Origin: Leuconostoc holzapfelii
GTDB taxonomy: Bacteria > Bacillota > Bacilli > Lactobacillales > Lactobacillaceae
Assembly (NCBI RefSeq): GCF_012396485.1
Contig: NZ_JAAXPO010000001.1
Location: 62,001-126,000, forward strand
Reading direction: 5' to 3'
DNA length: 64,000 nucleotides
The notes beneath the pieces are model-generated. The model ran no database searches. It was not told the origin of the DNA and saw only the letters and a list, made by a program, of their open reading frames with translations. The translations under genes and the position numbers were made by a program. Each line of letters opens with the position of its first letter. Positions within the stretch are counted from its first letter, which is position 1. This document shows positions 3,131-23,288 of this stretch, piece by piece.

Positions 3131-3141
3131 ATTAATTCCTC

Positions 3142-4131
3142 TTATTTTATGAAGTCAATATATTTTTCTAACCGGTCTGAATAATCAAAAAGTCGGCTTA
3201 ACTGTGACATTTGGTAATAGTTTTGTTTAGGTGGTGTATGATAAATTATAAATTTATCAGAATCGGGTTCATTTTGCTTGAAAAACTCAAATCCCTCAAT
3301 ATTTTGCATCCTCTCTGATCGCGCAATTTGACCGAAATCATCTGTGATATGAGCTACACCATTTACCACTTGTGTCGCAAAAAAACGAGCAGCTTGGCTT
3401 GAAATTGGGCCATAACCAATGAATTGAACTGTATTAATATCAAAATCTTGCTGTAACTCACTTAATGTTTCTAAAATTAATTGTCGATACCTATCACTCA
3501 AATAAAACTGCGCATACGAGCGGTCACTTGTAATTTGAATAACATCATCCAACTGCGCTATTAATGATTCGCGCACCCATGCCATGGTCCCCACAATTGG
3601 TTCAACAAAAATCACACGTAACGTCGTTGCAGAAGACGATGCGTGCATCACATCTGAGATTGACAAGCCTTCTTTTTGTAAAAGCAGCTTGTTATCTTCT
3701 TGTTGCTTTTGAATTTTAAGACTATGAAAATTCATTTTTGAAAAGCCAGAACTCAGCAGTGAGATTTCGTATTGGTACGTTGCAATTGGGAATTCAAATA
3801 CTTCACCTGAAAATTTGATTATCTTTCGTGTAATTTGTTGCGCAAAGCGGTCAAAAAATTTTATTTCAATATATAATGGCGTTTCCGGTATCACTTCAGC
3901 ATCATAAGTTAATTGGTATTTGATACCTGGTTGAAGTGCCGGCAACGGAGATACTGCCCGTCTAATCGGAAAATTTCCCGCTGAATGCCAAGTATGAATT
4001 TGTAACCCACTCGCCATCAAATTATTTTCAAAAAATACTTGATCGATACTTTTGTAAGTAATTTCAGAACCGTAAAGATACGTTTCCCCAACATTATGAT
4101 CCCAATAGATGACAAAATTGTTCCCAGTCAT
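3142..4131 (-). CDS. asp3: Accessory Sec system protein Asp3, long form
   Basis: Asp3 forms a cytosolic complex with Asp1 and Asp2 and helps SecA2 present the adhesin to SecY2. The N-terminal ~150 residues carry the Asp3 pattern: IYWDHNVGETYLYGS, an NNLMASGLQIHTW segment, a LPALQPGIKYQLTY stretch and carbohydrate-module-like beta strands. The protein is 329 residues, roughly twice what I recall for streptococcal Asp3. Residues ~165-329 form an additional part (TTLRVIFVEPIVGTMAWVRE onward) that I cannot assign; it has an alpha/beta-hydrolase-like feel but no GxSxG motif. AAGGAG lies 8 bases before the ATG. It sits between asp2 and secA2. Confidence 0.85.
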   Translation of the reverse strand: MTGNNFVIYWDHNVGETYLYGSEITYKSIDQVFFENNLMASGLQIHTWHSAGNFPIRRAVSPLPALQPGIKYQLTYDAEVIPETPLYIEIKFFDRFAQQITRKIIKFSGEVFEFPIATYQYEISLLSSGFSKMNFHSLKIQKQQEDNKLLLQKEGLSISDVMHASSSATTLRVIFVEPIVGTMAWVRESLIAQLDDVIQITSDRSYAQFYLSDRYRQLILETLSELQQDFDINTVQFIGYGPISSQAARFFATQVVNGVAHITDDFGQIARSERMQNIEGFEFFKQNEPDSDKFIIYHTPPKQNYYQMSQLSRLFDYSDRLEKYIDFIK

Positions 4132-4151
4132 CAGATTAACTCCTTCATTTA

Positions 4152-5675
4152 TTACGAAAAGGTTTTAATAATGCGTTGGTACTGATTTAAAAACCATTCA
4201 ATAATTTCACCAGTATTGTCGTTGTGGCGCCCACTAATTCCTTTGCCAATAACCATGGCACGGCTATTCCCTAATGTTTCAAGCAAATCGTCATACGCCG
4301 TTTGATCATAATCATCGTCACGCATGTATGCAATGGCAAAGGTTGTGTGATTAAACGGCGTTTTGCTGAACTTATGCCAAAACCGCTGGTTCAACATGTC
4401 AACATGCTTTGATGTTGTCCCACCCGTGTTTTGTAATAATAAATCAGAAGCTGTTCCAAATTCACCAGGTCGAAGAAAAACGCCGTTAGCAGCAATATTG
4501 CCCAAATTTGCAAGTGGCTTGCCCACAATGACAGCACCGGGTTCAAGATTGCTTGCGTAGTAAAGTGCCCCAAATGTGCCCATCGATAGACCTGACAAGA
4601 TTAATTGTTCCGAACTGAACCCCAAATCTGCGAGCTGATCTCGAATCACCTTGATGATCTTGGCTTCCATTTCAGGAGACCCAATGTAAAATGCACCACC
4701 TTCGAGCCTTGGATCAGCGATCAGGATAAACGGTTGCCTCAATTTTTTCATCATTGGAAACCCCTCAAAACCCTCGGCTGTTCGATAACCAGAAAAGTAT
4801 ACATTTAGTGGTGGTTTTAAGTTTCCTGGATAAAAATAGGTCATAATTTCTTCTGATTTTTGATCAACAAGACGCTGGCCACCAACAAGAAACTGGCCAA
4901 AATCTAATCGTGAGCGTCGGTGATGCAGTGAACCAAGCGATAACTTACCATAACCTTTCACGCGAATTGTAAATGACAAGTAGTATTCTGTCGCTAAGTC
5001 ACTGGCAATTACAATGGGCTTCACTTGATTTTTCAAATTAACTGTCCATGAATCGACAATCTTCAAACTATCTGTTGTTAACAATCGGACGACGAGTTCA
5101 GCCTCCAACGTCTCATCAATCGTATGTTCTAACCAATACTCATGATTAAATCTTGGTTCTGCAATCGCGTTAAATTGCCACGAAGCCACCGACTGGTAAC
5201 TTTGACCAAATTCACCAGAAATATCAATTTCCGAACTTCCAAAATAAGTCACATCATGATAAAAATCAGGCGAAATATGCAACATTTCAATACGAATACG
5301 ATCCCCATATTGGGCAAAATAGAAGTATTTTGTTAACTGATAAATAACATTCTCTTTATTTGAGAAGTCTAGATACGACGCAAAGTGACTTTTCAATTGC
5401 TGACGCCGCGTAACATCTTCTTCAGCCTCTTTAATGTCAACAACAATACGATATGGATCAACAAGCGCCATAATGGCTTCTAATTCAGCTATAGTTGAAA
5501 TTTCAGTCAATAACAGAACACTTGGTTGGCCGTTTTCCTCAACCCAAGCTTCAAAGTCAAGCAAACTGGTTTGAGATGGTAAGAAAGACCATGATAAAAA
5601 ATCATTTTCTGTCTTCAATATGTCCGACCAGTCGGCCATGCCTGTTTGTAAGACACTTATTTTATCTTCTTTCAT
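4152..5675 (-). CDS. asp2: Accessory Sec system protein Asp2 (putative adhesin O-acetyltransferase)
   Basis: Asp2 is needed for export of serine-rich repeat proteins, and in streptococci it also O-acetylates the GlcNAc on the adhesin. The C-terminal half shows an SGNH/alpha-beta hydrolase-like fold with the nucleophile motif GLSMGTFG near residue 360. The PGNLKPPLNVYFSGYR and EGFEGFPMMKKL segments are typical of the family. A longer frame opens at 5702. The ATG at 5675 is preferred because it forms a 4-base ATGA overlap with the asp1 stop and has GAAGGTG upstream. That gives 507 residues. The frame is complete. Confidence 0.9.
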   Translation of the reverse strand: MKEDKISVLQTGMADWSDILKTENDFLSWSFLPSQTSLLDFEAWVEENGQPSVLLLTEISTIAELEAIMALVDPYRIVVDIKEAEEDVTRRQQLKSHFASYLDFSNKENVIYQLTKYFYFAQYGDRIRIEMLHISPDFYHDVTYFGSSEIDISGEFGQSYQSVASWQFNAIAEPRFNHEYWLEHTIDETLEAELVVRLLTTDSLKIVDSWTVNLKNQVKPIVIASDLATEYYLSFTIRVKGYGKLSLGSLHHRRSRLDFGQFLVGGQRLVDQKSEEIMTYFYPGNLKPPLNVYFSGYRTAEGFEGFPMMKKLRQPFILIADPRLEGGAFYIGSPEMEAKIIKVIRDQLADLGFSSEQLILSGLSMGTFGALYYASNLEPGAVIVGKPLANLGNIAANGVFLRPGEFGTASDLLLQNTGGTTSKHVDMLNQRFWHKFSKTPFNHTTFAIAYMRDDDYDQTAYDDLLETLGNSRAMVIGKGISGRHNDNTGEIIEWFLNQYQRIIKTFS

Positions 5676-7258
5676 CCTGCACCTTCTAAAATATCTTGCC
5701 ATTGCTTAACAATTGCACCATTGCTATACTTTTGAATTTGTTGCACTGAATACACAAGTGCCTCGTTCCAATGGCTTAATCCCACCAGATAGTAATCCAT
5801 GGCTTGCGTTAGTTTACGACTATTGCTCAAAATGAAACCATTTTTTTTATGCAAAACATACGGGGACTCAATCTGATTGATTTGTGGAATACCAGAGCTA
5901 ATACCAGCGATTTGAGTGAAAATATCAGGTTGGTGACTTAAATCAACTATCAATCGTGTGCGCCGAAGTTCTCGGATAATCGCATCTTCTGATTCAAAAT
6001 ATTGCGCCTGAATGCGATCAATTAAATCTTTGGCCGCTTTTTCATCATTTGAAATCATATTTTCTGCCTCAACTTCGGCATTTTCATTCACCTGATTATC
6101 GCCTGCAATCATGTCAGCAATGATGTCTACCGAGACGCCAAATTTTTCAGATATTTTTTGTCTGATTTGCTGTTCGATCCGAGACTTTTCAAATCCATCT
6201 GCACAGGCCATAGTCACATACACCAATTTGTGAGCGATCGTGTAATCAACTGCAAAATCTATCAATTCTAAAATTTCCGCCTCTGATAAATCTTTAATCA
6301 TCATTAAGACATACATATTCTTAAATTGTTGACTTGTACCGAGTGTTAATCGTGCATCATAAGGTGGTAAATGATGTAATTTACGTTCCCAGTTTTCTAT
6401 CGCAGGGTAATCCAATTTTTGGCCGATTTCAGTCATCATTTGTTGGCGTAAATCTTCGGTATCAAAAACCATGAGACTTGCGGCGGACAGCGTATGCATA
6501 GGATTATCTATCATCAACTTTCTACCGTTTCGTGGTTCGAAGAAAGATAGAATCACAGTTTCAGGACGCGTCGTAATATTTAAAACTAACTCATTATGAC
6601 GTGAATCAGCGGCAACCACCATACGAGGCTTCTCTTCCTCATCTATGTGACTAAAGTATCGCGCAAGGCGTTCTTCAATTAATTCTTGCATGTTGCGATA
6701 ATGCGATTTAAAAAATCGTGCTTGATGTGTCGAATTAACAATAATTTCATGTGTTTCGACATATTCACGTATTTGCCAATCGCCACCCTTATCCAAATAA
6801 TCCGTGTATGCCTTTTGTCCATCAACATAATAAGCAATACTTGATACAAACCCACGGCTATCAAAATAAACTTCAACATCAACTTCACTACCTGAATAGT
6901 AGGTGATCTCTGACAAATAAGCGTCCTCACCAAATTTTATTCGAGCAAACATAGCGTCATGCACTAATACAATGATGTTAAATGGCGTATAAACAAATTC
7001 CGCGCCTTCTGGCCAGTTCAATTCCTCAAAGCTGATTATTCTTTGCATCACGTGATGCGTGTTTTGAATATCATCAAAAACCGCCCAGTAATTGATCGAC
7101 GATAAGTCTTGTTGATGTAAAAATTTTTCAATTTGAGTAATGTAGTTTGGCACAATAATTTGAATGGGTTCCTCGGCTGATTGAAACATTTTAATTTGAT
7201 TAATCGTATCGTCGAATGTAAGCCGCTCATCATACCAAGCTGGTATAAAGTAAAACAT
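5672..7258 (-). CDS. asp1: Accessory Sec system protein Asp1
   Basis: Asp1 is the GT-B-fold-like subunit of the Asp1/2/3 complex that couples glycosylation to export of the adhesins. It begins MFYFIPAWYDE, the usual Asp1 opening, and is 528 residues, the usual size. The C-terminal third (SGIPQINQIESPYVLHKKNG, then a HWNEAL helix) resembles the glycosyltransferase-like substrate site without obvious catalytic residues. GAAGGAA precedes the ATG by 6 bases. It overlaps asp2 by 4 bases and follows secY2 by 27, so the order secY2-asp1-asp2-asp3-secA2 is the standard one. Confidence 0.92.
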   Translation of the reverse strand: MFYFIPAWYDERLTFDDTINQIKMFQSAEEPIQIIVPNYITQIEKFLHQQDLSSINYWAVFDDIQNTHHVMQRIISFEELNWPEGAEFVYTPFNIIVLVHDAMFARIKFGEDAYLSEITYYSGSEVDVEVYFDSRGFVSSIAYYVDGQKAYTDYLDKGGDWQIREYVETHEIIVNSTHQARFFKSHYRNMQELIEERLARYFSHIDEEEKPRMVVAADSRHNELVLNITTRPETVILSFFEPRNGRKLMIDNPMHTLSAASLMVFDTEDLRQQMMTEIGQKLDYPAIENWERKLHHLPPYDARLTLGTSQQFKNMYVLMMIKDLSEAEILELIDFAVDYTIAHKLVYVTMACADGFEKSRIEQQIRQKISEKFGVSVDIIADMIAGDNQVNENAEVEAENMISNDEKAAKDLIDRIQAQYFESEDAIIRELRRTRLIVDLSHQPDIFTQIAGISSGIPQINQIESPYVLHKKNGFILSNSRKLTQAMDYYLVGLSHWNEALVYSVQQIQKYSNGAIVKQWQDILEGAG

Positions 7259-7285
7259 ACTGATTTCCTTCTATTCATGTTCCTT

Positions 7286-8539
7286 TTACAAAAGTGCGCT
7301 ATATTTGTTTTTCGACCAAAGTGCTTGCACCTGATCATTGACCGTAATGGTCATTCCAACGACAATTAAAACCATACTTGTACTCATCACAATATTCGTG
7401 TAACTCTCATCAATTAGCCCGAGATAAAGTGGGATGCCTGCAAATAATTCCAGATAAACAGCACCGACGGTTGCTAGTGAAAAAATTTTCTTTGTGAGAA
7501 AATTTTTTGTCGACACCCCTGGATCAACGCCAACGATATAGTCCCCATTTTGCTGCAACGTCTCACTCATTTGATCCGGATCGACATTCACAAATGCGAA
7601 TCCAATTGTCAAAATAAATAATATAAAGACATAGAAAGTGATGCCTAATGCGCTTGACAACGTTAGATTAGAAATAAGATACAAAATTACTTGATTGTCT
7701 GGCCAAAAAACCGCAAGGAGTTGAAAAATATATTGTGGCAAGGTCATGATTGTCATGCTATACATCAACGGCATCCCACCGGCTGGATTGACGAGTAGCG
7801 GTAAATAAGTATTTTGATAAAAATCACTACTATTCAATACATTTTTAATTGCGATCCGATATTCTGACAATTGCATAACAAGTGCAATTCGAGTTAATAT
7901 CGCAACACCGGCAATCGCAGTTACAATTGTCATTAACCCTGTTACCCACATGCCAGATTGAAATATCGGATTCAGATATTCCAAAACATTTTTTGGTATT
8001 TTGATTAACATACCGGCCAAAATTAAGACTGACGGCCCACCTAGCCCGTAAATATCATTCATGTTCGATAGCCAAATCAATAATACACTACCCGCTACCA
8101 TGATAAACGCGACTTCTAATGCTTCATAAACACCGGAAAATCCCGTGACCTTGCCACTTTGGTCCAGAGAAATTGTAAACGCAATGGATAAACTTTGAAT
8201 GACGGCCAGTAATAATGCGAGTAGCATTTTCAACACATAGGCCCGTGTTGTCGTAATTTTATCCAGCTCCAATCTTTTAAATAATTGCAAAACACGCCAA
8301 ATAATTAAAGCTGACATCCATGGCGCCAAGCCCAAAGAAAACAAGGACAGCGTACTTAAATCACCACCTGTCGTGCCACTGACAAATTGCAACATGTATT
8401 GATTGTTACTGAACTTTAGCACCTGATCAACATTAACACCAGGGACTAAAATATGGCGACCAGTAACGAAAACTACCAGAACCAATATTGTCCAAAGTCC
8501 CTTTTTCCCAATGACCTTTGTGTCACGTCTTAATCTCAT
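7286..8539 (-). CDS. secY2: Accessory Sec channel SecY2
   Basis: Membrane channel of the accessory Sec pathway. The protein has about ten hydrophobic segments, starting with one right after a basic N-terminus (RLRRDTKVIGKKGLW), and SecY-type features such as the first-helix region LVPGVNVDQVL and a cytosolic loop containing VNVDPDQMSETLQQNGDYIVG. It is 417 residues, shorter than housekeeping SecY, as is usual for SecY2. A TTG at 8560 would extend it by seven residues, but AGGAG lies 5 bases before the ATG at 8539, so that start is chosen. It is first in the operon and divergent from the first AraC gene. Confidence 0.93.
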   Translation of the reverse strand: MRLRRDTKVIGKKGLWTILVLVVFVTGRHILVPGVNVDQVLKFSNNQYMLQFVSGTTGGDLSTLSLFSLGLAPWMSALIIWRVLQLFKRLELDKITTTRAYVLKMLLALLLAVIQSLSIAFTISLDQSGKVTGFSGVYEALEVAFIMVAGSVLLIWLSNMNDIYGLGGPSVLILAGMLIKIPKNVLEYLNPIFQSGMWVTGLMTIVTAIAGVAILTRIALVMQLSEYRIAIKNVLNSSDFYQNTYLPLLVNPAGGMPLMYSMTIMTLPQYIFQLLAVFWPDNQVILYLISNLTLSSALGITFYVFILFILTIGFAFVNVDPDQMSETLQQNGDYIVGVDPGVSTKNFLTKKIFSLATVGAVYLELFAGIPLYLGLIDESYTNIVMSTSMVLIVVGMTITVNDQVQALWSKNKYSALL

Positions 8540-8586
8540 ACGTTCTCCTAAAAATTTCAAAACCCACCTATACTTTTAAGCAACGC

Positions 8587-8933: not shown

Positions 8934-10043
8934 ATGAAAGATTTAGAGAATTTTGCACACACATTAAACGCACAATCGTATCTATATAATATTAAGAGTA
9001 GAGAGATTTCGCCCCTTAATGTCAGTTCAAACGCACAATTTGAACTAGTAAAAAAACTTATTCCGAAATTTGGAAAGTATCCAGATCAAATCTATCAGTC
9101 ATTTACATTCACAACAGGTCATCTTTTATCGATTAAAGTATCCGAAACCTCTGCTGTTTGTTTTTTATTTGACTTCAACCAAACTGACTTCTCAAAAAAA
9201 CAGCTCAACTTAATTAATGTAATGACCAAATTGACACAAATTTCGGAAATTATTTATCGCTTATATACAGGAGAAATGGCACCAAAATCAGACGTCTTTA
9301 TTCACAACAGTACGCTAAGTAAAGAATTTGATGACCAGCAACCTTTAACACCAGATTGCACATCGTACTATAATGTCGAAACTGAAATTTTAAAAGCAAT
9401 TGTTTATTCAAATAAGGAAGATTTAATCGCTGCGCTTGAAAAATTACCACGCATTAATTTTTTCAACGTACTCAGCACGCAAGATATTTCATTCCGTCAA
9501 AAAAAAGACTTTATTGTTTCATATATCGCAATTTTGACACGCGCTATTGATCAATGGGGCTACCCTATCGACCAAGCATTTAAACTTCAGAAAGACTTAG
9601 TAACTGAAATCGAACATGCCAAACAATTCCCTGATTTCATTGGCACCCTTTGAGGCTTGGCGTGGTTTTATTTTAAAACAATTCAATCCTATCGTATTAA
9701 CAACTTTTTACCGCTAGCAACACGCATTAAATCTTATATTAATGAACATATTTGCGATAATATTTTATTAGCAGACATCGCCGAAGCGGTTCACACGTCA
9801 AAGAAAAATCTTAACCCCGCATTTAAAGCCGAGTTTGGTGTAACCATTACACAATTTATTCGCAGCGCAAAAATTGACCGCGCAAAAGAAATATTAGTCA
9901 TTTCTGATGCGGCTATCCCAGAAATTGCCAGCCATCTAGCATTCTCAACACCAAGTTATTTTATAAAAACTTTTAAAAACATTACCGGTATGACACCAAA
10001 CTATTTTAGAAATAACTTTCTCAGCCTCACAGCTAGTCAATAA
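8934..10043 (+). pseudogene. AraC-family regulator, interrupted by an in-frame TGA
   Basis: A single frame of 369 codons encodes an N-terminal domain of unknown ligand and a C-terminal AraC/XylS double helix-turn-helix (about residues 264-365, with HICDNILLADIAEAVHTSKK and FSTPSYFIKTFKNITGMTP). Codon 240 (9651-9653) is TGA, so the normal product would be 239 residues without DNA-binding. The paralogue at 22,186 reads DFINTLNGVTWFYF where this one has DFIGTL-stop-GLAWFYF, which confirms the stop lies inside the gene. A TTG two codons later could in principle restart a free DNA-binding domain, but no good ribosome-binding site is visible. It is divergent from secY2 and probably its regulator. 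Confidence 0.85.
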
Positions 10044-10266: not shown

Positions 10267-13200
10267 CTATAACTTCTTATTCTTCTTACTTTTCTTCAAC
10301 ACTAGTGGAGACATTAAGAGTCCTAACCCCAATAAAGCGGTGGTCGTGACGCTCTTTTCACCAGTTTGAGGCAAAATTGACGATTCATTCACCTTTGAAA
10401 GTTTTTGTGAACCACCCACATTAGTGATAATTGTCGAATCATGAGTTGTTGAGCTGATAACTGATTCAGACGTTGCTACACTCGTCGAGGCCGCAATTGA
10501 TTCGGACGTTGCTACACTTGTCGAGGCTGCATCTGATTCAGACGTTGCTACACTTGTCGAGGCTGCAATTGATTCGGATGTTGCTACACTTGTCGAGGCT
10601 GCAATTGATTCGGATTCAACTACACTTGTTGATACTGAATCTGATTCGGACGTTGCTACACTTGTCGAGGCTGCAATTGATTCGGACGTTGCTACACTTG
10701 TCGAGGCCGCAATTGATTCGGATTCAACTACACTTGTCGAGGCTGCATCTGATTCAGAGGTTGCGACACTTGTCGAGGCTGCAATTGATTCGGACGTTGC
10801 GACACTTGTCGAGGCCGCAATTGATTCGGATTCAACTACACTTGTTGATACTGAATCTGATTCGGATTCAACTACACTCGTCGATGCTGAGACCGATTCG
10901 GATTCAACTACACTTGTTGATACTGAATCTGATTCAGAGGTTGCGACACTTGTTGATACTGAATCTGATTCAGAGGTTGCGACACTTGTCGATACTGAAT
11001 TTGATTCAGACGTTGCTACACTCGTCGAGGCCGCAATTGATTCGGATTCAACTACACTTGTCGAGGCTGCATCTGATTCAGAGGTTGCGACACTTGTCGA
11101 GGCTGCAATTGATTCGGATTCAACTACACTTGTCGAGGCTGAATCTGATTCGGATTCAACTACACTTGTTGATACTGAATCTGATTCAGACGTGGCTACA
11201 CTTGTCGATGCTGCAATTGATTCGGACGTTGCTACACTTGTCGATGCTGCATCTGATTCAGACGTTGCTACACTTGTCGAGGCCGCAATTGATTCGGACG
11301 TTGCTACACTCGTCGAGGCTGCATCTGATTCGGATGTTGCGACACTTGTTGATACTGAATCTGATTCGGATGTTGCGACACTTGTTGATACTGAATCTGA
11401 TTCAACTACACTTGTTGATGCCGCATCTGATTCGGATGTTGCGACACTTGTCGATGCTGAATCTGATTCAGATGTTGCGACACTTGTTGATACTGAATCT
11501 GATTCAGATGTTGCGATACTTGTCGATGCTGCAATTGATTCGGATTCAACTACACTTGTTGATACTGAATCTGATTCAGATGTTGCGACACTTGTCGATA
11601 CTGAATTTGATTCAGACGTTGCTACACTCGTCGAGGCCGCAATTGATTCGGATTCAACTACACTTGTCGATGCTGCATCTGATTCAGACGTGGCTACACT
11701 TGTCGAGGCCGCAATTGATTCGGACGTTGCTACACTCGTCGAGGCTGCATCTGATTCGGATGTTGCGACACTTGTCGAGGCTGAATCTGATTCAGATTCA
11801 ACTACACTTGTTGATACTGAATCTGATTCAGATGTTGCGACACTTGTCGAGGCTGAATCTGATTCAGAGGTTGTGACACTTGTTGATGCCGCATCTGATT
11901 CAGAGGTTGCGACACTTGTTGATGCTGAATCTGATTCAGATGTTGCGACACTTGTCGAGGCTGAATCTGATTCAGATGTTGCGACACTTGTTGATACTGA
12001 ATCTGATTCGGATGTTACGACACTTGTCGATGCTGCAATTGATTCGGATTCAACTACACTTGTTGATACTGAATCTGATTCGGATTCAACTACACTCGTC
12101 GATGCTGAGACCGATTCGGATTCAACTACACTTGTTGATACTGAATCTGATTCAGAGGTTGCGACACTTGTTGATACTGAATCTGATTCAGAGGTTGCGA
12201 CACTTGTCGATGCCGCAATTGATTCGGACGTTGCGACACTTGTTGATACTGAATCTGATTCGGATGTTGCGACACTTGTCGATGCTGAATCTGATTCGGA
12301 TGTTGCGACACTTGTTGATGCCGCATCTGATTCGGATGTTGCGACACTTGTCGATGCTGAATCTGATTCAGATTCAACTACACTTGTTGATACTGAATCT
12401 GATTCAGATGTTGCGACACTTGTCGATGCTGAATCTGATTCAGATGTTGCGACACTTGTCGATGCTGAATCTGATTCAGATGTTGCGACACTTGTTGATA
12501 CTGAATCTGATTCAGATGTTGCGACACTTGTCGATGCTGAATCTGATTCAGATGTTGCGACACTTGTTGATGCTGAATCTGATTCAGATGTTGCGACACT
12601 TGTTGATACTGAATCTGATTCAGATGTTGCGACACTTGTTGATACTGAATCTGATTCGGATGTTGCGACACTTGTTGATACTGAATCTGATTCGGATTCA
12701 ACTACACTCGTCGATGCTGAGACCGATTCGGATTCAACTACACTTGTCGAGGCTGCATCTGATTCAGATGTTGCGACACTTGTCGAGGCTGCATCTGATT
12801 CGGATGTTGCGACACTTGTTGATACTGAATCTGATTCAACTACACTTGTTGATACTGAATCTGATTCAGACGTGGCTACACTTGTCGATGCTGCTATTGA
12901 TTCGGATTCAACTACACTTGTCGAGGCTGCAATTGATTCGGACGTTGCGACACTTGTCGATGCTGCATCTGATTCGGATGTTGCGACACTTGTTGATACT
13001 GAATCTGATTCAGATGTTGCGACACTTGTTGATACTGAATCTGATTCAGATGTTGCGACACTTGTCGATGCTGAATCTGATTCAGATGTTGCGACACTTG
13101 TCGATGCTGAATCTGATTCAGATGTTGCGACACTTGTTGATGCCGCATCTGATTCGGATGTTGCGACACTTGTTGATACTGAATCTGATTCGAATGTTGC

Positions 13201-15672
13201 GACACTTGTTGATACTGAATCTGATTCAGATGTTGCGACACTTGTTGATACTGAATCTGATTCAGATTCAACTACACTTGTTGATGCTGAATCTGATTCA
13301 GATGTTGCGACACTTGTTGATACTGAATCTGATTCAGATGTTGCGACACTTGTTGATGCCGCATCTGATTCGGATGTTGCGACACTTGTTGATACTGAAT
13401 CTGATTCGGATGTTGCGACACTTGTCGATGCTGAATCTGATTCAGATGTTGCGACACTTTCTAATACTGAATCTGATTCGGATGTTGCGACACTTGTTGA
13501 TGCCGCATCTGATTCGGATGTTGCGACACTTGTTGATGCCGCATCTGATTCGGATGTTGCGACACTTGTCGATGCTGAATCTGATTCAGATGTTGCGACA
13601 CTTGTTGATACTGAATCTGATTCGGATGTTGCGACACTTGTTGATACTGAATCTGATTCAGATGTTGCGACACTTGTCGATGCTGAATCTGATTCAGATG
13701 TTGCGACACTTGTTGATGCCGCATCTGATTCAGATGTTGCGACACTTGTTGATGCCGCATCTGATTCAGATGTTGCGACACTTTCTGATACTGAATCTGA
13801 TTCGGATTCAACTACACTCGTCGATGCTGCATCTGATTCAGAGGTTGCGACACTTTCTGATTCCATTTGAGAGTGTGAGGTTGCTTCTGAATTAGTCACA
13901 ACATGTACAATAGTATCCGAACCCAAGTCAACTGGAACTCCACCATTCAAAATATCCTGTACATTAACATCATTCCCATTGTTATCAGCGTAAAAACTAT
14001 ACCCGTCAGGTATGTCAATTGGAATATCGGGGTAATTTCCACTCTCTGAATTTCCCGCATCGTTGACATATTGTTTTTCCGAAGCAATATGACCGTCTTC
14101 GCCAATAACAACTAATGATCCCAATTTTTTATACTGAAATTTTACTTCGTTACTAATTGGACCATATGGATTAATTAAAGTTATTTTACCTGTAGGAAAT
14201 GCACGGCTCGAAAAAATAGTTACTTGCCTGATTTGACCTGGTTTTAACTTTGCTCCTCGAGTCATTGTCCCGGTTCCGGCTGAATTATTTTGTAAAATAT
14301 GACTCTGAACTGTTCCATCTTCACTAATGAGTTCATATTCTACCGATACGCCGTCATATTTAACTGTGTACGTGTCTCCAACTTTTGAAAATGGTGAAAA
14401 TATACCTTTGCCATTATGATAAACATCTTCACTAAAATAACCTTGAACAACTTCACCTGGATTTACCGAGTATAAGGTTCCAGAATAGCCTAGCACATCT
14501 TCACTCGATGAATTACCATTTTGATCAATACGTGTTATGGTTTGATTGGTTACAATCGGCTCGATAGCATCTATATTTGTTACTTGATTTTTCCCAGTAT
14601 AATCGCTTAGAGTAGTTTGGTTACTAACTGCATCTTCTCCTGGAATAACAGCAACTGCTGCTGAAATGTTAGTATCATTTTTCGAAATATAAACTTCTAT
14701 ATATCCAAATATCGTACTAACAGTCTGCACATCATCACTAATAGTTAAATTTGTTACTTTAGATTTCCAAATTTGATGATCATTATCAAAATACCGTTCT
14801 GTCATAAATATGAGAGAACTACCTGGTGTTTGATCCATCGAAAGTGTAATACTGCCAATTTTTTGAATTTTTGGTGCCCCATTAATCTCAACAGGTGCAG
14901 TTATATTCGTTCCTAAAAAATCAACTGCATCTTTGATATTGGACAATGGATAGCCATCTGGATAAACTGGCTTCATAATATTCCCATCAGTTACATTAGC
15001 TATCGTGTTTGACGCTGGCATTGATGGATTTTCTCGTGTCTGATCATTAGTTTGGCTCGCATTCGTGTTTTGCGGCACTGTACTTGAAGCATTCGCAGCT
15101 GAGGTGTTACCTGATTCTGATGTCGATTCGTTTGTCGAGCCTGCTACTTGTTGACTGCCTACATTCGCACTCGTACTCGTTGACCCCGGTGTTGCGCTGG
15201 CTGCTAAGCTCGTTGATGCCTTTGTCACTTCGGATGCAGCTGTGTGCTCACTTACTGAGGTAATCTTATCTGTGGCAACTGTCGATGTCACTGTAGACTC
15301 TGATACTGTACTGGTTGATGCTGACTGACTTGAGGCGGTCGACCCTGCTGGAATCATCACTGTATTCTGATCAATCACATTGTCTGCGGCAGCACCCTTT
15401 TCGTTGGCCACAGGTGTGTCCGCAAACACATCACTATTTGTCATGACCGTGCCACCCAGCAACGCTCCGACACCAATTAAGCCTTTGAGCAGCCCATGTT
15501 GTGCTTGCCCTTTTTCTTTGGTCTCTGTTGCTTGATTTGCCATATCAGACTTTTTTGTTAAGAATGTAAATCTTGATAACCCCGCTGTTATCCAATTTTT
15601 ACCGTCTTTATACATTTTAAAGCGTGTCACGCGACTGACTTCTGGCCGATAGGACCCGTGTTTTCTTTTCAT
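10267..15672 (-). CDS. Serine-rich repeat glycoprotein adhesin 1 (SRRP1), LPxTG-anchored
   Basis: An intact 1801-residue surface adhesin, the expected cargo of the SecA2/SecY2 system. In order, it has a long signal peptide with the KxYKxGKxW motif (KMYKDGKNW, residues 19-27) and a glycine-rich hydrophobic core ending near TNSDVFAD. Next come a short Ser/Thr-rich stretch to about 235 and a non-repeat, presumably ligand-binding region (~236-600) with beta-rich and MucBP-like segments. A very long Ser-rich repeat region (~600-1745) follows, then the sorting signal LPQTGE near 1765, a hydrophobic helix and a basic tail (KKSKKNKKL). Glycosylation of the repeats is inferred from the family. AGGGGAG precedes the ATG by 9 bases. 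It lies downstream of SRRP2 on the same strand, behind a terminator. Confidence 0.93.
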   Translation of the reverse strand: MKRKHGSYRPEVSRVTRFKMYKDGKNWITAGLSRFTFLTKKSDMANQATETKEKGQAQHGLLKGLIGVGALLGGTVMTNSDVFADTPVANEKGAAADNVIDQNTVMIPAGSTASSQSASTSTVSESTVTSTVATDKITSVSEHTAASEVTKASTSLAASATPGSTSTSANVGSQQVAGSTNESTSESGNTSAANASSTVPQNTNASQTNDQTRENPSMPASNTIANVTDGNIMKPVYPDGYPLSNIKDAVDFLGTNITAPVEINGAPKIQKIGSITLSMDQTPGSSLIFMTERYFDNDHQIWKSKVTNLTISDDVQTVSTIFGYIEVYISKNDTNISAAVAVIPGEDAVSNQTTLSDYTGKNQVTNIDAIEPIVTNQTITRIDQNGNSSSEDVLGYSGTLYSVNPGEVVQGYFSEDVYHNGKGIFSPFSKVGDTYTVKYDGVSVEYELISEDGTVQSHILQNNSAGTGTMTRGAKLKPGQIRQVTIFSSRAFPTGKITLINPYGPISNEVKFQYKKLGSLVVIGEDGHIASEKQYVNDAGNSESGNYPDIPIDIPDGYSFYADNNGNDVNVQDILNGGVPVDLGSDTIVHVVTNSEATSHSQMESESVATSESDAASTSVVESESDSVSESVATSESDAASTSVATSESDAASTSVATSESDSASTSVATSESDSVSTSVATSESDSVSTSVATSESDSASTSVATSESDAASTSVATSESDAASTSVATSESDSVLESVATSESDSASTSVATSESDSVSTSVATSESDAASTSVATSESDSVSTSVATSESDSASTSVVESESDSVSTSVATSESDSVSTSVATFESDSVSTSVATSESDAASTSVATSESDSASTSVATSESDSASTSVATSESDSVSTSVATSESDSVSTSVATSESDAASTSVATSESIAASTSVVESESIAASTSVATSESDSVSTSVVESDSVSTSVATSESDAASTSVATSESDAASTSVVESESVSASTSVVESESDSVSTSVATSESDSVSTSVATSESDSVSTSVATSESDSASTSVATSESDSASTSVATSESDSVSTSVATSESDSASTSVATSESDSASTSVATSESDSVSTSVVESESDSASTSVATSESDAASTSVATSESDSASTSVATSESDSVSTSVATSESIAASTSVATSESDSVSTSVATSESDSVSTSVVESESVSASTSVVESESDSVSTSVVESESIAASTSVVTSESDSVSTSVATSESDSASTSVATSESDSASTSVATSESDAASTSVTTSESDSASTSVATSESDSVSTSVVESESDSASTSVATSESDAASTSVATSESIAASTSVATSESDAASTSVVESESIAASTSVATSESNSVSTSVATSESDSVSTSVVESESIAASTSIATSESDSVSTSVATSESDSASTSVATSESDAASTSVVESDSVSTSVATSESDSVSTSVATSESDAASTSVATSESIAASTSVATSESDAASTSVATSESIAASTSVATSESDSVSTSVVESESDSASTSVVESESIAASTSVATSESDAASTSVVESESIAASTSVATSESNSVSTSVATSESDSVSTSVATSESDSVSTSVVESESVSASTSVVESESDSVSTSVVESESIAASTSVATSESIAASTSVATSESDAASTSVVESESIAASTSVATSESIAASTSVATSESDSVSTSVVESESIAASTSVATSESIAASTSVATSESDAASTSVATSESIAASTSVATSESVISSTTHDSTIITNVGGSQKLSKVNESSILPQTGEKSVTTTALLGLGLLMSPLVLKKSKKNKKL
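10455..13870 (-). repeat. Serine-rich repeat region of SRRP1: about 95 units of 36 bp
   Basis: The coding strand repeats a 12-residue unit of the type SESDSVSTSVAT with a few interchangeable variants (SDAAST, SDSAST, SIAAST, and VVES replacing VATS). Many copies are identical at DNA level. Because 36 is a multiple of three and the unit lacks stops in several frames, it also creates long open frames on the opposite strand. Confidence 0.95.
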
Positions 15673-15815: not shown

Positions 15816-15858
15816 AAAAAGTCACCCTCCGGTAAGAATTAAATTACCGAAGGGTGAC
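15816..15858 (-). terminator. Intrinsic terminator of SRRP2
   Basis: A 15-bp stem (15821-15835 with 15844-15858) has one position that is C-A on the plus strand but a G-U wobble on the minus strand. It is followed by T5 on the minus strand and T6 on the plus strand. It separates SRRP2 from SRRP1, so SRRP1 must have its own promoter in 15,673-15,815, where I cannot name boxes with confidence. Confidence 0.85.
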
Positions 15859-16109
15859 TTTTTTGCACGATTACACAATGCGTTGTTTAAGATTCAAAAG
15901 ATTACTGCGATCTTAGCGTTATTCTCGCCTTAATCTTGAGATTTTTTATTCTTTTTGTTTCGCTTTAGTGCAAGCGGTGCTGCCAATAGGCCAAGACCTA
16001 GTAATGCAGTTGTTGTATCGTGTTCACCTGTTTCAGGTAAGAGACCATCCTTTTTAACCTGATTTGGTACTTGTGAACCGATAGATTGACTATCACTTGA
16101 ACTCGTCGA

Positions 16110-16830
16110 CGTTACAGCTGTTGATTCAGATGCGCTTGTCAAAGCTGACTTTGATGCTGTCTCACTTTCTGATACCACATTTGATTCTGATGCTACTTCA
16201 CTCGTTGAAACAGCCGTTGATTCTGATGCGCTGGTCGAAGCTGACTTTGATGCTGTCTCACTTTCTGATACCACATTTGATTCTGATGCTGCTTCACTCG
16301 TTGAAACAGCCGTTGATTCTGATGCGCTGGTTGAAGCTGACTTTGATGCCGTCTCACTTTCTGATACCGCATTTGATTCTGATGTTGCTTCACTCGTTGA
16401 AACAGCCGTTGATTCTGATGCGCTGGTCGAAGCTGACTTTGATGCTGTCTCACTTTCTGATACCGCATTTGATTCTGATGTTGCTTCACTCGTTGAAACA
16501 GCCGTTGATTCTGATGCGCTTGTCGAAGCTGACTTTGATGCTGTCTCACTTTCTGATACCGCATTTGATTCTGATGCTGCTTCACTCGTTGAAACAGCCG
16601 TTGATTCTGATGCGCTTGTTGAAGCTGACTTTGATGCTGTCTCACTTTCTGATACCGCATTTGATTCTGATGCTGCTTCACTCGTTGAAACAGCCGTTGA
16701 TTCTGATGCGCTTGTCGAAGCTGACTTTGATGCTGTCTCACTTTCTGATACCGCATTTGATTCTGATGCTGCTTCACTCGTTGAAACAGCTGTTGATTCT
16801 GATGCGCTTGTCGAATTCGATGAAATCATT
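16110..16830 (-). repeat. 96-bp tandem repeats in the C-terminal repeat region of SRRP2
   Basis: About seven copies of a 32-residue unit (core ASESTAVSTSEAASES then NAVSESETASKS) lie head to tail. They differ by a few substitutions such as EAAS/EATS/EVAS and NAVS/NVVS. Confidence 0.9.
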
Positions 16831-18834
16831 GAAATAAATTCTGATGCATTTGCAGAACCTGATTGACTTGAAGATACAATTTCAGATGTCATTTCTGACA
16901 CAACCTGACTTAGTGAAATCAATTGTGATATTGCATTTGATTGCGATCCAGCCACACTTGTTGACTCTGACGCAACCTGTGACGTTGACACACTCGTTGA
17001 CGCTAACTCACTCGCTGCCTTTGAACCCGCCGCACTCGCTGACGCAATCGCTGACGTTGCGACGCTCATTGACGCTTGGGCTGAAGCCAACTGTGAGGCC
17101 ATCTCTGACGCAATCGCTGACGTCCGTTGTGACGTGACCGCGCTCGTTGACGCTAACCCGGATTCAACCAGCGAAACAGTTTCACTCATTGAAATGACTG
17201 CCGAAGTTACAGCACTAGTTGATCTACTAGTTGACACTTGATCTGAAGCCATCTGTGAGGCCATTTCTGACGTCCGTTGTGACGTTGACACACTCGTTGA
17301 CGCTAACTCACTCGCTGCCTTTGAACCAGCCGCACTCGCTGACCCGATCTCGGATGTGAGCTTTGAAATCGCATCACTCTTTGAGCCGGTTTCGCCTGCG
17401 GACGCAATCTCTGACGCGACATGTGACGTTGACACACTCGTTGACGCTAACTCACTCGCTGCCTTTGAACCAGCCGCAATCTCTGAAACAATCGTTGAGG
17501 TTGCCTGTGAAAGTGCTTCACTCACAGAATTAGCCTCACTGGCTGATGCTAACTCACTCGCTGCCTTTGAACCAGCCGCGCTCGCTGAGACTAGCTCAGA
17601 TGTAAGCTTTGAAATCGCATCACTCTTTGAACCGGTTTCGCCTGCGGACGCAATCTCTGACGCGACCTGTGACGTTGACACACTCGTTGACGCCCATTCT
17701 GAACCAGTCTTTGAAATCAACTCGCTCGCTGACACCATCTGAGATGCTAACACACTCGTTGACGCCACGGCTGAATCTGCTACAGATGCTACTATTGACG
17801 CAGTTTTTGATGAAGCTCCTGAGTTGATTTCACTCGCCGACGCCCATTCCGATTCAATCTGAGATACAGCCTCGCTCATCGAAATGACTGCCGAAGTTAC
17901 AGCACTAGTTGATCTACTGGTTGACGCTTGGGCTGAAGCCATCTGTGAGGCCATCGCTGACGCGCTTTGTGACATGACAGCACTCTTTGACGCTAACTCA
18001 CTCGCTGCCTTTGAACCCGCCGCGCTCGCTGACACAATCTCGGATGCACTCTTTGAAATCGCATCACTCTTTGAGCCGGTTTCGCCTGCGGACGCAATCT
18101 CTGACGCCGCCTGTGAGTTGGCCACACTCGTTGACGCTAACTCACTCGCTGCCTTTGACGCAACCGCCATTTCTGACGCAATTGCTGATGTTGCGACGCT
18201 TGCAACAGCAGATTCAATTGTAGACGCAATCCCCGACGTCCTTTGTGACATGACGGCGCTTGTTGACGCTAATTCACTCGCTGCCTTTGAACCCGCCGCG
18301 CTCGCTGACACGATCTCGGATGTGAGCTTTGAAATCGCATCACTCTTTGAGCCGATTGCGCCTGCAGACGCAATCGCTGACGCTACCTGCGACGTTGACA
18401 CACTCGTTGACGCTAACTCACTTGCTGCCTTTGAACCCGCCGCCATCTCTGATGCAATCGTTGACGTTGCCTGTGAAAATACTTCGCTCGTTGACACTTG
18501 AGCTGACCCGGCCTGTGAAATTGTTTCACTGATTGAAGCAATAGTCGAGCCCATATTAGAATTTTCAAGGCTGGCTGATGCAACCCGTGAAGCAGCAACA
18601 GATACTTCTTGGCTGACAGAGGTCATCCCCGACCAATTACTTGAACCAGTTGAGGCTGTTTCCGAATTAAAAGCCGAGGCCCAAGCACTGGTGGAATCAA
18701 AAATAGACTTTGTCTCAGAAACCGCTTGCGAAATAACTGCACTCGTTGATGCCACTTGTGAAGATACACGCGAATCAGAAGCTGCAACACTTGCCGAGCT
18801 TACCTGAGAATCTTTGGTCGAAGCAGATTCAGAT

Positions 18835-19170
18835 TGTTGCACAGAACCTGCTAACATAGCCGATTCAACTTCCGAACGGTAGATTGAAGCCCACTCACTG
18901 AGCGACACAAGCGCTGACAGACTGATTGACTGGTCTTGAGAAGCTGTCAAACTCGTTGATGCCACTTGTGATACGTTTTCAGAATCAGCAACCGATTGTG
19001 ACTGTTGCACAGAACCTGCTAACATAGCTGACTCAACTTCTGAGCGATAAATTGAAGCCCACTCACTGAGAGAGACGAGCGCTGACAGACTGATTGACTG
19101 GTCTTGAGAAGCTGTCAAACTTGATGATGCTTCTTGTGATGCACTCTTAGAGTCGGATATTTTTTCACTT
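18835..19170 (-). repeat. 168-bp direct duplication within SRRP2
   Basis: Two copies offset by 168 bases encode the same 56-residue block (with SISLSALVSLSEWASIYRSE). It is unusual in containing Trp and Tyr inside an otherwise Ser/Ala/Thr-only region. Confidence 0.85.
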
Positions 19171-22137
19171 TCAGAGTGTTGTACAGAAGTCTGATATGAT
19201 GCAATTTCGGAATTTACTTGACTCGCTGAGATACTCTGTAATGCCGAAATCGATGTTGAATCCGCTTGATTCGTTGAAACGCTCTGAGATGTTGCAATTG
19301 ATTCTGAGGCCGCTTGCGAGTTTACAATTGATGTAGAGACCGACTGACCCGTTGAGGCACTTCGTGAAGCTGCAATTGATGTTGAGACTTCCCGACTTGT
19401 TGAGGCAGTTTGTGAAGCTGCAATTGATGTTGAAGCTAACACGCTTCCTGAGGTTAACTGCGAATTAATAATTGAAATTGACAGTGATTGTCTTGTTGAA
19501 TCCTGTGTTGAAACTTCCGTACTTAACGATGCCGCATTTGAAATATTCCTTGAACGTTCTTCAGAAAGTACAGTACTAGTCGATCCGTTTTGTGATTGTA
19601 GTAATGACATTGCGTCACTCAAAGAAACTGAGTGCGATAACTTCATTGAACCAACTTGCGAAATAGACGCAGATTGCGAACCAGCTTTTGACGCAACTAA
19701 GCTCTTAGAATTACTTTCAGAGACATGTGCTGACTTCGCTTGACTTTCTGAACTATTACGTGACGTAACGATTGACGTCGAAACCACTTGTGAATCAGAT
19801 ATTGATGTTGAAGTTGCTTGGCTCGCAGAAGTATTCTGTGATGCAACAATGGAGGTTGAGGTTGCTTGACTCTCTGAAATATTCTGTGATGCTACAACAG
19901 ATTTTGAGGCCACTTGTGACGTTGCAATTGAGCCTGAGGTTGTTTGTGACACGGCGACTGAGGTTGAATCAGCCTGTGATGAAACGACCGATGTTGAGGT
20001 CACTTGGCTCTCTGAAATATTCTGTGATGTCACAATTGATGTCGAGGCCACTTGTGATGTTGCAGTTGATCCCGAGACTGTTTGTGACGCGTCTGTGCTT
20101 GCTGAAACCGCTTGTGATACATTCTTACTTGTCAAAACGGACTGACTCGCCGAATCTGATTTTGAAGCAGTCTCTGATGTTGGAGTAATCGTTACAACTG
20201 TATCTTGTCCCAATTCTTTAGGTACTTTACCATTTAAAATATCATCTATGGTCACGTCTTGACCACTAACTGTTGATTTATAACCATCTGGGATGACATT
20301 TAAAGGGTATGTTGCGCTTGACGCATCATGAGGGTTATTAACATATTGTACATTTGCATAAACCGTACCATCGCCTTGCTTAACCACTAAATGCCCTAAT
20401 TGCTTGTACACATACTCAACATCTGATGATGGGAAATATGGATTTAAAAGTACAAAATCAGTACTATAGTCAGCATCGTTTGGCCCGATCTTATCTACAA
20501 CTTGGTCCGGTGTACCATCAGTAAACTTAACAACGGCACGCATAGTACCATCCTAACCAATTTGAGTATAAGTTACAGTCGCAGTATCACTAAGTCGTTG
20601 CGAATATTCTGCTCCAATCTTGCCATATGCTGATATTTTTCCGCTACCATTGTTATGCAAATCTTCAATGTAGTAGCCTTCCCTAACTGGTCCAGATGTG
20701 GATGTATATCTTTCACCTTCCCAACCAACTTCCTCATGGGTTTCAATAATTTTACCGGTTTCAGCATCAATAAGCTTAACAGTTTGTTTGACTTGTATTG
20801 GTACAAAAGTAGTTTTTCGCTGTCCACCGCCACCTAAGTCACGGATACCATAAGAATATTTATTGATAAGTGTTTTTTTTACAGAATCCATTCGGGTGTA
20901 TTGCATGCGCACAGAATTCCGGTCACCATCTTTGGTAAAGTAAAATTTAAGCCCAGCAATGACATCTGAAGAATAAGAATAATAAGCAAGAGTTACTGTA
21001 TTTGTATATATCTTCCCGTCAGTATCTTTTTCGCGAATAACAATCTCATCAGGATTATCACGTCTGACAGATATTAATATGTCGTCATAGGTGACGGAAT
21101 CATCCATTGCAATAAGAGCCCCCCACCAAAAGTCATATAAATTATCATCATTTGACCGCGGCATGCTTGCTGGATAATCTGGTTCTGAAACTGAGCTGTT
21201 AGCCTTTGCATTGGCCGTATTGTTTTCAGCATTCACAGTCGCTGAATTCAACGCATTGTCTGTCAATGACGTTGAACTTGTTGGCGTCTCGCTCGTTGAT
21301 TCTGATGTTGAAACTGTGGTCGTCTCTGAGCCTTGTTGACTGGTTACTTGGCTCGTTTCCCCAGCACTTTCGCTCATCGATGTTGAACTCACACGTTCCC
21401 CAGTTGACACGTCGACACGAGCGGCCTCTGAGTTCGAGCCCGTTGCACCTTGGTTTGTTGACGCTGTTGTACTTTGACTGGTTGTAGCTTGATCTGACGT
21501 GACAGTTGATGTCGACGCCGTCGTTTCTGCTGATGCCGAAGTAGACGTCCCCTCAGATTCAGATGTAACGCCTGATTCTGATACAGACCCAGCACCACTT
21601 ACCTGCGTGCTCGTGCTGGTTGATCCTGCAGGAATTGTCACCTTGTTTTGATCAACTAAATTGTCCGCTGCCGCATTTTTTTCATTGGCAACTGTTGTGT
21701 CCGCAAAAACATCGCTGTTCGTCATTACTGTACCACCCAGTAATGCACCAACACCGATTAACCCTTTAAGCAAACCATTGTGACCTTGTTGCTTTTCTTG
21801 AGTAGTGGTTGTTTTTTCAACCAAATCCGACTTTTTTGTTAAAAAGGTAAACCTAGATAACCCGGCGGTAATCCAATTTTTACCATCTTTATACATCTTG
21901 AAACGCGTCACCTGTTTGATCTCAGGTTTAAATAATCTATGTTTTCTTTTCATATGCTAAGTCCCCTTTTAGATTGATTTTCATACAAAGAATGTATTGG
22001 CACTATTATCTTTGATATTGGAGATTAAAGCGTGCGAATAAAAGTCCATACATATCAAAATGGAACCTTTTACACAGCTTTTTGCTTTTTATCCCCAACT
22101 TTTACTTTATAATCAAAAATTGTTTACTATAACACAA

Positions 22138-22185: not shown

Positions 22186-23288
22186 ATGAAAGACATAACT
22201 AATTTTGCACAGATATTAAATGCCAACGTATACCTCAAAACTAATGATGAAATAGATCAGGTGGATTCGCAATCTGCAGTAAAAAGAACACAATTAAAAA
22301 ACGCAATCGTATTCTTTGAAAAATATCCTCAAAAAACCTATCAAGCTATCAGTTTTGATACAGGCTATATTTTAGCCGTTCAAGTATCATCTAGCGAGAC
22401 GATTTATTACCTGTTTGACTTTAATCGTAGCTCATTTTCAGAAAGTCAGTTTCGACTAGTCAGTGTGCTCACAAAACTAGAATTAATTTCACAGACCATT
22501 TATCGATTGTATACTGGAAATATCGCCCCACGCGAACATCTTTTATCCATAATAAGCGTTTATCACAAAGAGTTATCGAACATTCACCGATTGATCCAGA
22601 TTGTTCGTCTTATTATGATGTTGAAAATGAAATCATTAACGCAGTTATTTATTCTAATCAAGATGATCTCGTTATGGCTATCGAAAAATTACCAAATATC
22701 CATTTCTTTGATGCGTTGGATATTGACCATGCAACCCTCCGGCAAAAAAAAGACTTTATTGTCTCTTATATTGCTATTTTGACCCATGCCATTGAGCAAT
22801 GGGGGTATCCGGTTGACCGTGCTTTTAAAATACAAACAGATCTTGTAAACGAAATAGAACATGCCATTAATTTTCCAGATTTCATTAATACATTGAATGG
22901 TGTGACCTGGTTTTATTTCAAAACCATTCAAAATTATCGCATCCACAACTTCCTACCGCTTCCAGATCGCATCATGTCGTATATTAATGAACACGTTTGT
23001 GACAACATTAATTTAGATGACATTGCCAAAGCAGTCCATGCCTCAAAAAAGAACTTGAATCCAGCATTTAAGGAAAAGTTTGGCATTACGATTACGCAAT
23101 TTATCCGAAAAAATAAGATTGATCGCGCAAAAGAAATTCTAATTGTGTCGGATGCACCCATTCCAGATATCGCCAAACAATTAGCGTTTTCGACGCCAAG
23201 TTACTTTATTAAAACGTTTAAAAAAGTTACTGGTTTAACACCTAAATATTTTAGAAATCACTTTCTAGAAGACGAATTAAACCAATAA
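22186..23288 (+). pseudogene. AraC-family regulator, second paralogue, frameshifted
   Basis: It starts at ATG 22,186 (MKDITNFAQILNANVY) behind AAGGA. It is a clear paralogue of the gene at 8934, with the same domain plan and a C-terminal AraC double helix-turn-helix (HVCDNINLDDIAKAVHASKK, FSTPSYFIKTFKKVTGLTP). Homology follows the first frame to LYTGNIAPREH. It then jumps to the frame that reads FIHNKRLSQRVIEHS.., YYDVENEIINAVIYSNQDDL, and on through the DNA-binding domain to 23,288. The jump is at the T run 22,541-22,544, where one base is missing. Unaided translation would give a truncated protein with a scrambled tail. It is divergent from SRRP2 and so probably its regulator. Confidence 0.85.

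What the first reader, a model, noticed from the sequence alone, without database searches (positions are those of the whole stretch)
20541..20560. SRRP2 amber codon coincides with a possible restart site
The TAG is followed in the same frame by ATG four codons on. The stop itself sits in TTAGGA, which places AGGA 7 bases before that ATG. The locus could therefore make an exported, unanchored binding fragment (466 residues) and a signal-less repeat protein. The homologous SRRP1 position has Glu, so a GAG-to-TAG change is the simplest origin.
Basis: partly seen in the sequence, partly recalled or inferred. Interest (0 to 1): 0.65.

Follow-up and report, generated by a model that had tools for sequence, protein, structure and literature searches.

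The report
Broken adhesin gene, accidental restart site
A large surface-adhesin gene of a Leuconostoc bacterium is cut short by a stop codon inside its binding region; the nearby start signal that could restart translation looks like an accident of the mutation rather than a built feature, and three neighbouring genes of the same cluster look broken too.

Summary
On the minus strand an in-frame TAG (20553-20555) ends SRRP2 after 466 codons, ATG follows four codons on (20541-20543), and AGGA ends 7 nt before it. The genome is a Leuconostoc.

The restart site is most likely incidental. The ATG is an old structural Met: 31 of 32 aligned relatives have it. The AGGA is made by TAG running into the next codon, GAT; 0 of 32 relatives have an SD-like 4-mer there. 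Restart is physically possible: only 7 of 390 internal ATGs match its predicted SD strength. But the stop falls mid-hairpin in the predicted fold, and the second product would lack a signal peptide.

Best reading: a recent nonsense pseudogene in a decaying SRRP/accessory-Sec locus. Three neighbours carry one lesion each: gtf3-like (frameshift), araC1 (TGA), araC2 (frameshift), while 28 of 28 assessable other genes in the window look intact. None of 51 tRNA genes has a CUA anticodon. Pseudo-SRRPs are already described (PMC4667477, PMC6973325). 'GAG-to-TAG' is not supported: SRRP1 has GAA and the column is variable.

The parts
20553..21953 (-). srrp2, 5' part: KxYKxGKxW signal peptide, short Ser-rich segment and first part of the binding region; 466 codons and the TAG
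   Evidence: KxYKxGKxW_sig PF19258 E 3.5e-10
20553..20555 (-). in-frame amber (TAG) stop
20551..20554 (-). AGGA, made of the AG of TAG and the GA of the following GAT
   Evidence: SD-like 4-mers absent from 32 of 32 relatives
20541..20543 (-). ATG: conserved structural Met codon and possible restart
15930..20543 (-). srrp2, 3' part: rest of binding region, serine-rich repeats, LPETG anchor; 1537 codons, no signal peptide
20184..21209 (-). srrp2 binding region as searched and modelled (342 residues; the stop is residue 219)
15816..15863 (-). 20-pair hairpin with U run, a likely intrinsic terminator between srrp2 and srrp1
   Evidence: sequence; fold -33.1 kcal/mol, z -8.98
10267..15672 (-). srrp1: open SRRP paralogue (1801 aa, LPQTG anchor)
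22186..23288 (+). araC2: AraC-type regulator divergent from srrp2; frame lost somewhere in about 22520-22605
8934..10043 (+). araC1: AraC-type regulator divergent from secY2; in-frame TGA at 9651-9653
1..743 (-). gtf3-like glycosyltransferase; frame lost around 270-295; the rest continues beyond the window edge
758..8560 (-). intact accessory Sec genes secA2, asp3, asp2, asp1, secY2
   Evidence: NCBIfam matches over cut-off

Best explanation
srrp2 is a recently inactivated adhesin gene. One amber codon ends translation in the middle of the binding region. At most, an exported truncated fragment without wall anchor is made; it would hold the first beta-rich domain and an unfinished MucBP-like domain. 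The 'restart' ATG is a structural methionine conserved across the family, and its SD-like AGGA was formed by the stop codon itself abutting GAT. Some ribosomes may restart there; the product would be a signal-less repeat protein left in the cytoplasm, with no sign that it was selected. The inactivation is part of a wider loss around this SRRP/accessory-Sec cluster: a gtf3-like gene and two AraC regulators (one divergent from srrp2, one from secY2) carry one lesion each, while the Sec machinery, srrp1 and the two ORFs in the gtfA and gtfB positions are open. Shown: the stop, the conservation of Met, the origin of the AGGA, the other lesions, the absence of CUA among the tRNA genes found. Inferred: recency, loss of function, little or no second product.
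For: Met at the ATG column in 31 of 32 relatives; 0 of 32 with an AGGA/GGAG/GAGG 4-mer at -14..-5; median SD energy -3.35 against -8.8 here. The stop column is variable: S 9, A 6, D 6, E 3, G 2, N 2, Y 2, Q 1, H 1. The stop sits in a turn between strands 210-216 and 223-229; mean pLDDT 84.6. Part of residues 139-271 superposes on YwfG 7yl4 (Z 4.3, 63 residues, rmsd 1.8) and SraP 4m00 (Z 3.6, 64 residues) with a large insertion. Of 51 tRNA genes 0 have a CUA anticodon and RF1 is present over its cut-off. Four of 10 locus genes are broken against 0 of 28 assessable other genes; hypergeometric 0.0028, locus borders chosen after the fact. A strong hairpin terminator after srrp2 and no Rho match over cut-off remove polarity as a reason to keep the 3' part translated. 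Pseudo-SRRPs have precedent (PMC4667477, PMC6973325, passages read).
Against: The 3' part is open over 1537 codons with an intact LPETG, as if still used. The restart site is unusually good: 7 of 390 internal ATGs score as well, and a random amber seldom brings such a site. Only one genome of the species was available, so recency and fixation are untested. The relatives are only 20-40% identical and not all independent (31 distinct rows of 32; several from the same genus). Lesions in related genes also appear in other Leuconostoc genomes: gtf3-like frames are short in G004 and G017 (228 and 283 codons), and AraC relatives are split in G004 or hold a TAA in G008, so single lesions there are not peculiar to this genome and some may be assembly errors.
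Confidence: 0.75

Rival explanations
1. Stop-restart: terminating ribosomes reinitiate at ATG 20541 and the locus makes an exported unanchored fragment and a separate signal-less repeat protein, both present in useful amounts.
For: AGGA with 7 nt spacing, SD energy -8.8; 9 nt between stop and ATG, within the <25 nt said to be optimal for coupling (PMC7538156, passages); reinitiation at a nearby ORF-internal Met codon is cited as known in PMC6728339 (passages); no unusual RNA structure.
Against: ATG ancestral and AGGA incidental; split falls mid-hairpin; the second product has no export signal; none of the 32 relatives aligned has the arrangement.
Confidence: 0.08
2. Sequencing or assembly error: the codon is sense in the real genome.
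For: Single codon in a draft genome of 18 contigs; no second lesion in 1537 codons; three more single lesions nearby.
Against: Lesions cluster in the SRRP locus while 28 of 28 assessable other genes in the window look intact; completeness 100, contamination 0.49. An isolated substitution error in an assembly is uncommon (general knowledge).
Confidence: 0.12
3. Read-through: the TAG is decoded some of the time and a low level of full-length SRRP2 is made.
For: The frame is open on both sides; TAG is rare as a stop among the window ORFs listed (2 of 40, one of them this stop); a small leak at any stop is possible.
Against: 0 of 51 tRNA genes carry CUA; RF1 present over cut-off; TAG also ends srrp1.
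Confidence: 0.05

Closest known systems
Pseudo-SRRPs at accessory Sec clusters of lactobacilli (e.g. L. reuteri ATCC 53608 LRATCC53608_0916-_0917 and strain I5007 LRI_0846-_0848; PMC4667477, passages read)
   Same: An SRRP gene split into adjacent ORFs at or next to a SecA2/SecY2 cluster.
   Different: Here a single amber inside the binding region of a Leuconostoc SRRP, followed at once by a good SD-ATG pair; the type of lesion in the L. reuteri cases was not given in the passages I saw.
SRRPs lacking the wall anchor through pseudogenisation but still exportable (PMC6973325, passages read)
   Same: Predicted exported, unanchored product.
   Different: Many of those are said to lack only the anchor; here the break comes before the binding region is complete and before the main repeats.
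Termination-reinitiation / translational coupling in bacteria (PMC6728339, PMC7538156, passages read)
   Same: Stop and start within a few nucleotides with an SD motif.
   Different: Those papers treat pairs of genuine genes; here both halves come from one broken gene.
YwfG cell surface protein (PDB 7yl4) and SraP ligand-binding region (PDB 4m00)
   Same: Local fold match within model residues 139-270; that the matched part is a MucBP-type domain is recalled.
   Different: Z only 4.3 and 3.6 over 63 and 64 residues; no sequence match in PDB at E<=1.

Membership tests
Serine-rich repeat protein (accessory Sec substrate) | KxYKxGKxW signal peptide | tested here: met
   PF19258 E 3.5e-10, TIGR03715 E 3.2e-8
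Serine-rich repeat protein (accessory Sec substrate) | signal peptide, long serine-rich repeats and LPXTG anchor in one open frame | tested here: not met
   Repeats and anchor are present but after the TAG; as it stands the gene is a pseudo-SRRP
Serine-rich repeat protein (accessory Sec substrate) | linked SecA2/SecY2/Asp genes | tested here: met
   secA2, asp1-3, secY2 over cut-off
Pseudo-SRRP | SRRP domains spread over adjacent ORFs by a disabling change | tested here: met
   (1 TAG inside)
Pseudo-SRRP | no functional full-length product | not testable with these tools
   needs protein data
Termination-reinitiation pair | stop and start close together with an SD motif | tested here: met
Termination-reinitiation pair | arrangement conserved in relatives | tested here: not met
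   0 of 32 relatives have the stop or the SD motif there
Termination-reinitiation pair | two products made | not testable with these tools
   needs ribosome profiling or protein data
MucBP domain (part of binding region) | Pfam or fold match | tested here: inconclusive
   no Pfam family in the binding region at E<=0.01; weak local fold match only

The most novel reading that the evidence does not exclude
A single amber has turned one adhesin gene into a two-product unit. Because of the family's x-Asp-Gly-Thr-Met motif, any TAG in this variable column before a GAT or GAC codon brings its own ribosome-binding site. Such adhesins could then shed a free binding fragment while restarting a cytoplasmic repeat protein that serves as a glycan or glycosyltransferase sink.
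Probability: 0.05. Interest if true: 0.5.

Novelty: new member of a known kind. Interest (0 to 1): 0.2.

Why it matters
It shows how a stop codon can create an apparently purposeful restart site by itself when it falls before an Asp codon and a conserved Met, a trap when reading split genes as two-product loci. It also records a Leuconostoc accessory-Sec/SRRP locus that keeps its export genes and one adhesin open while the second adhesin, two adjacent AraC-type regulators and a glycosyltransferase gene carry lesions.

Tried and rejected
Amber suppression: not supported, since 0 of 51 tRNA genes has CUA; a tRNA that Rfam missed, or one in an assembly gap, is not excluded. One odd tRNA-like gene with an 8-nt anticodon loop (taga) was considered as a frameshift suppressor; the quadruplet it would read (TCTA) is absent from the break intervals of gtf3 and araC2, the nearest being at 357 and 22653.

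Polarity as a reason for keeping the 3' part translated: rejected, because a strong hairpin terminator separates srrp2 from srrp1 (the pattern scan did not report it, I did not find out why) and no Rho match reaches its cut-off (two weak hits, 41 and 22 bits, not followed up; the control search is over cut-off in only 8 of 14 genomes).

First named-genome scan with the pre-stop piece alone found nothing; the alignment query found 7 loci. PDB sequence search found nothing at E<=1. Foldseek gave no match at E<=0.001. In VIA-align the top row (Z 5.4, residues 23-118) is a viral glycoprotein and all Z are under 8, so the fold names are only leads. Plasmid search gave 14 records at 24-27% identity, used as context only. 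The neutral-time estimate (871 of 13833 single substitutions in the 3' part would make a stop, so about 0.01 substitutions per site as a 95% upper bound if unconstrained) rests on nonsense changes alone and one genome, so 'recent' is an inference. Rows left out of the 32-relative alignment: L052-L056, which match contigs already in; the upstream piece of the frame-split L067; and the places that were given no locus.

Literature: five searches. They gave pseudo-SRRP precedents; in those listings I saw no report of this Leuconostoc gene, but the library lacks most subscription papers. I read found passages only, of PMC5972666, PMC4667477, PMC6973325, PMC7538156 and PMC6728339.

Full report
What is there. 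The window lies in contig C1 of a 1.76 Mb genome in 18 contigs. Two genomes of the same genus in the search set hold their SRRP relatives on contigs of 12666 and 300427 bases, the lengths of the Leuconostoc inhae and L. rapi records found by name, so the genome is a Leuconostoc; the species was not determined. From 758 to 8560 (minus) lie secA2, asp3, asp2, asp1 and secY2, each over its NCBIfam cut-off. Two serine-rich repeat protein genes follow: srrp1 (10267-15672, 1801 aa, open) and srrp2 (15930-21953, minus).

The stop. srrp2 is open from an ATG with a fair SD (-8.4) to a TAG at 20553-20555 (466 codons), and again from ATG 20541 to a TAA at 15930 (1537 codons). SRRP1 has Glu at the aligned position, encoded by GAA, so a GAG-to-TAG origin does not follow from SRRP1. 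The three closest Leuconostoc rows have Ser there, and the column holds S 9, A 6, D 6, E 3, G 2, N 2, Y 2, Q 1, H 1 among 32 relatives. The ancestral codon cannot be inferred.

Is the restart site a feature? I aligned the binding region with 32 relatives (31 loci plus SRRP1; 31 distinct rows; 20-40% identity). The ATG column is Met in 31 of 32; the exception is SRRP1 (Val). The Met therefore long predates the stop. In 0 of 32 relatives is there an AGGA, GGAG or GAGG at -14 to -5 from that column, and predicted pairing with the 16S tail (tail recalled) has a median of -3.35 kcal/mol against -8.8 in srrp2. The AGGA exists because TAG is followed by GAT. Thirteen of the 32 relatives have Asp in the next column, so the same accident could recur. 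Against my reading: the site is strong. Only 7 of 390 internal in-frame ATGs of 40 window ORFs score as well, and the median for the ORFs' own starts is -6.1 (the 40 include three ORFs of broken genes and some starts are surely mis-set). A random amber brings such a site in only 0.5 to 3.8% of cases, depending on how loosely it is defined. Restart at some level is plausible.

What the two halves would be. AlphaFold2 on the 342-residue binding region (18-row alignment, TAG read as a residue) gives mean pLDDT 84.6, pTM 0.77. The stop is residue 219, between strands 210-216 and 223-229; the restart Met is residue 223, the first residue of the next strand. VIA-align superposes parts of residues 139-271 on YwfG (7yl4, 63 residues, rmsd 1.8, Z 4.3), Amy12 (7lsa, 65 residues, rmsd 1.5, Z 5.2) and SraP (4m00, 64 residues, rmsd 2.5, Z 3.6); that these are MucBP-type or similar domains is recalled. 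Only about 65 of those 133 residues align, so I infer that a segment around 195-262, where the stop lies, is an insertion in that domain. These Z values are modest, and the top row overall (Z 5.4) is an unrelated-looking viral protein on residues 23-118. The 466-residue product would thus end within a domain, and the other product would start within it and have no signal peptide. No Pfam family was found in the binding region at E<=0.01.

Decoding. Rfam RF00005 found 51 tRNA genes. ARAGORN read an anticodon for each; none is CUA. One, the weakest, is odd, with an 8-nt anticodon loop. RF1 is present over cut-off. TAG is the stop of 2 of the 40 ORFs listed, this one and srrp1. Read-through by a suppressor is therefore unlikely.

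Neighbours. Three further genes of the locus carry one lesion each. araC1 (8934-10043), divergent from secY2, has one in-frame TGA at 9651-9653 in an otherwise alignable frame (42.6-44.5% identity to seven relatives over residues 1-362). araC2 (22186-23288), divergent from srrp2, changes frame somewhere in about 22520-22605. A gtf3-like gene next to secA2 (best NCBIfam match 'sugar transferase', below its cut-off; the name gtf3 is recalled) changes frame around 270-295. Relatives in G005 and G016 are open (360 and 348 codons), but those in G004 and G017 are shorter (228 and 283), and AraC relatives are split in G004 or hold a TAA in G008. Two ORFs beyond the window, 502 and 449 aa, lie where gtfA and gtfB are expected; the first has homologues beside gtf3 in four relatives, and neither was searched against a family library. 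For the rest of the window, 28 of 33 ORFs have a family match of near-full extent or over an intact domain. Four (24310, 29762, 46771, 57006) had no NCBIfam match at 1e-20, and one (63638-63982) was not scanned. Four broken of 10 locus genes against 0 of 28 gives 0.0028; an earlier count with 32 typed-in controls gave 0.0019, and adding the two outside ORFs gives 0.0054. The locus was delimited after the fact. The clustering argues against random assembly error and for decay of the locus.

Transcript. A 20-pair hairpin with a U run (z -8.98) stands between srrp2 and srrp1, and no Rho match reaches cut-off, so a translated 3' part is not needed to protect srrp1 from polarity. The RNA around the restart is not unusually folded.

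Known or new. Pseudo-SRRPs, including ones split over adjacent ORFs and ones lacking the anchor, are described in L. reuteri and other species (PMC4667477, PMC6973325; passages). In the binding-region survey of 397 genomes, 49 have a match, and 3 of 63 places carry an internal stop: this one (TAG); one in G025 where the frame is split (its contig length, 3401, is that of the L. fallax record); and one weak short match in G361. I file this as a new member of a known kind, with an incidental SD-ATG pair. It is of low to moderate interest.

Noticed in passing
8934-10043 (+): AraC-type regulator divergent from secY2, interrupted by an in-frame TGA at 9651-9653.
   Followed up: partly
22186-23288 (+): AraC-type regulator divergent from srrp2, frame lost in about 22520-22605.
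   Followed up: partly
1-743 (-), continuing outside the window: gtf3-like glycosyltransferase after secA2 with a frame break near 270-295.
   Followed up: partly
L051:101-175 (G000:C14:17533-17607): Odd tRNA-like gene: weakest of 51 hits (42.2 bits), anticodon reported as taga in an 8-nt loop; either a decayed tRNA or an unusual one.
   Followed up: partly
L067 / L054 (G025; L. fallax record): Relative of the binding region split by a frame change about 11-15 codons upstream of the srrp2 stop position; could be sequencing error.
   Followed up: no
16114-16815: 96-bp tandem array, 7.3 copies at 97% match, near the C-terminal end of srrp2, more uniform than the other repeat arrays listed there (58-90%).
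   Followed up: no
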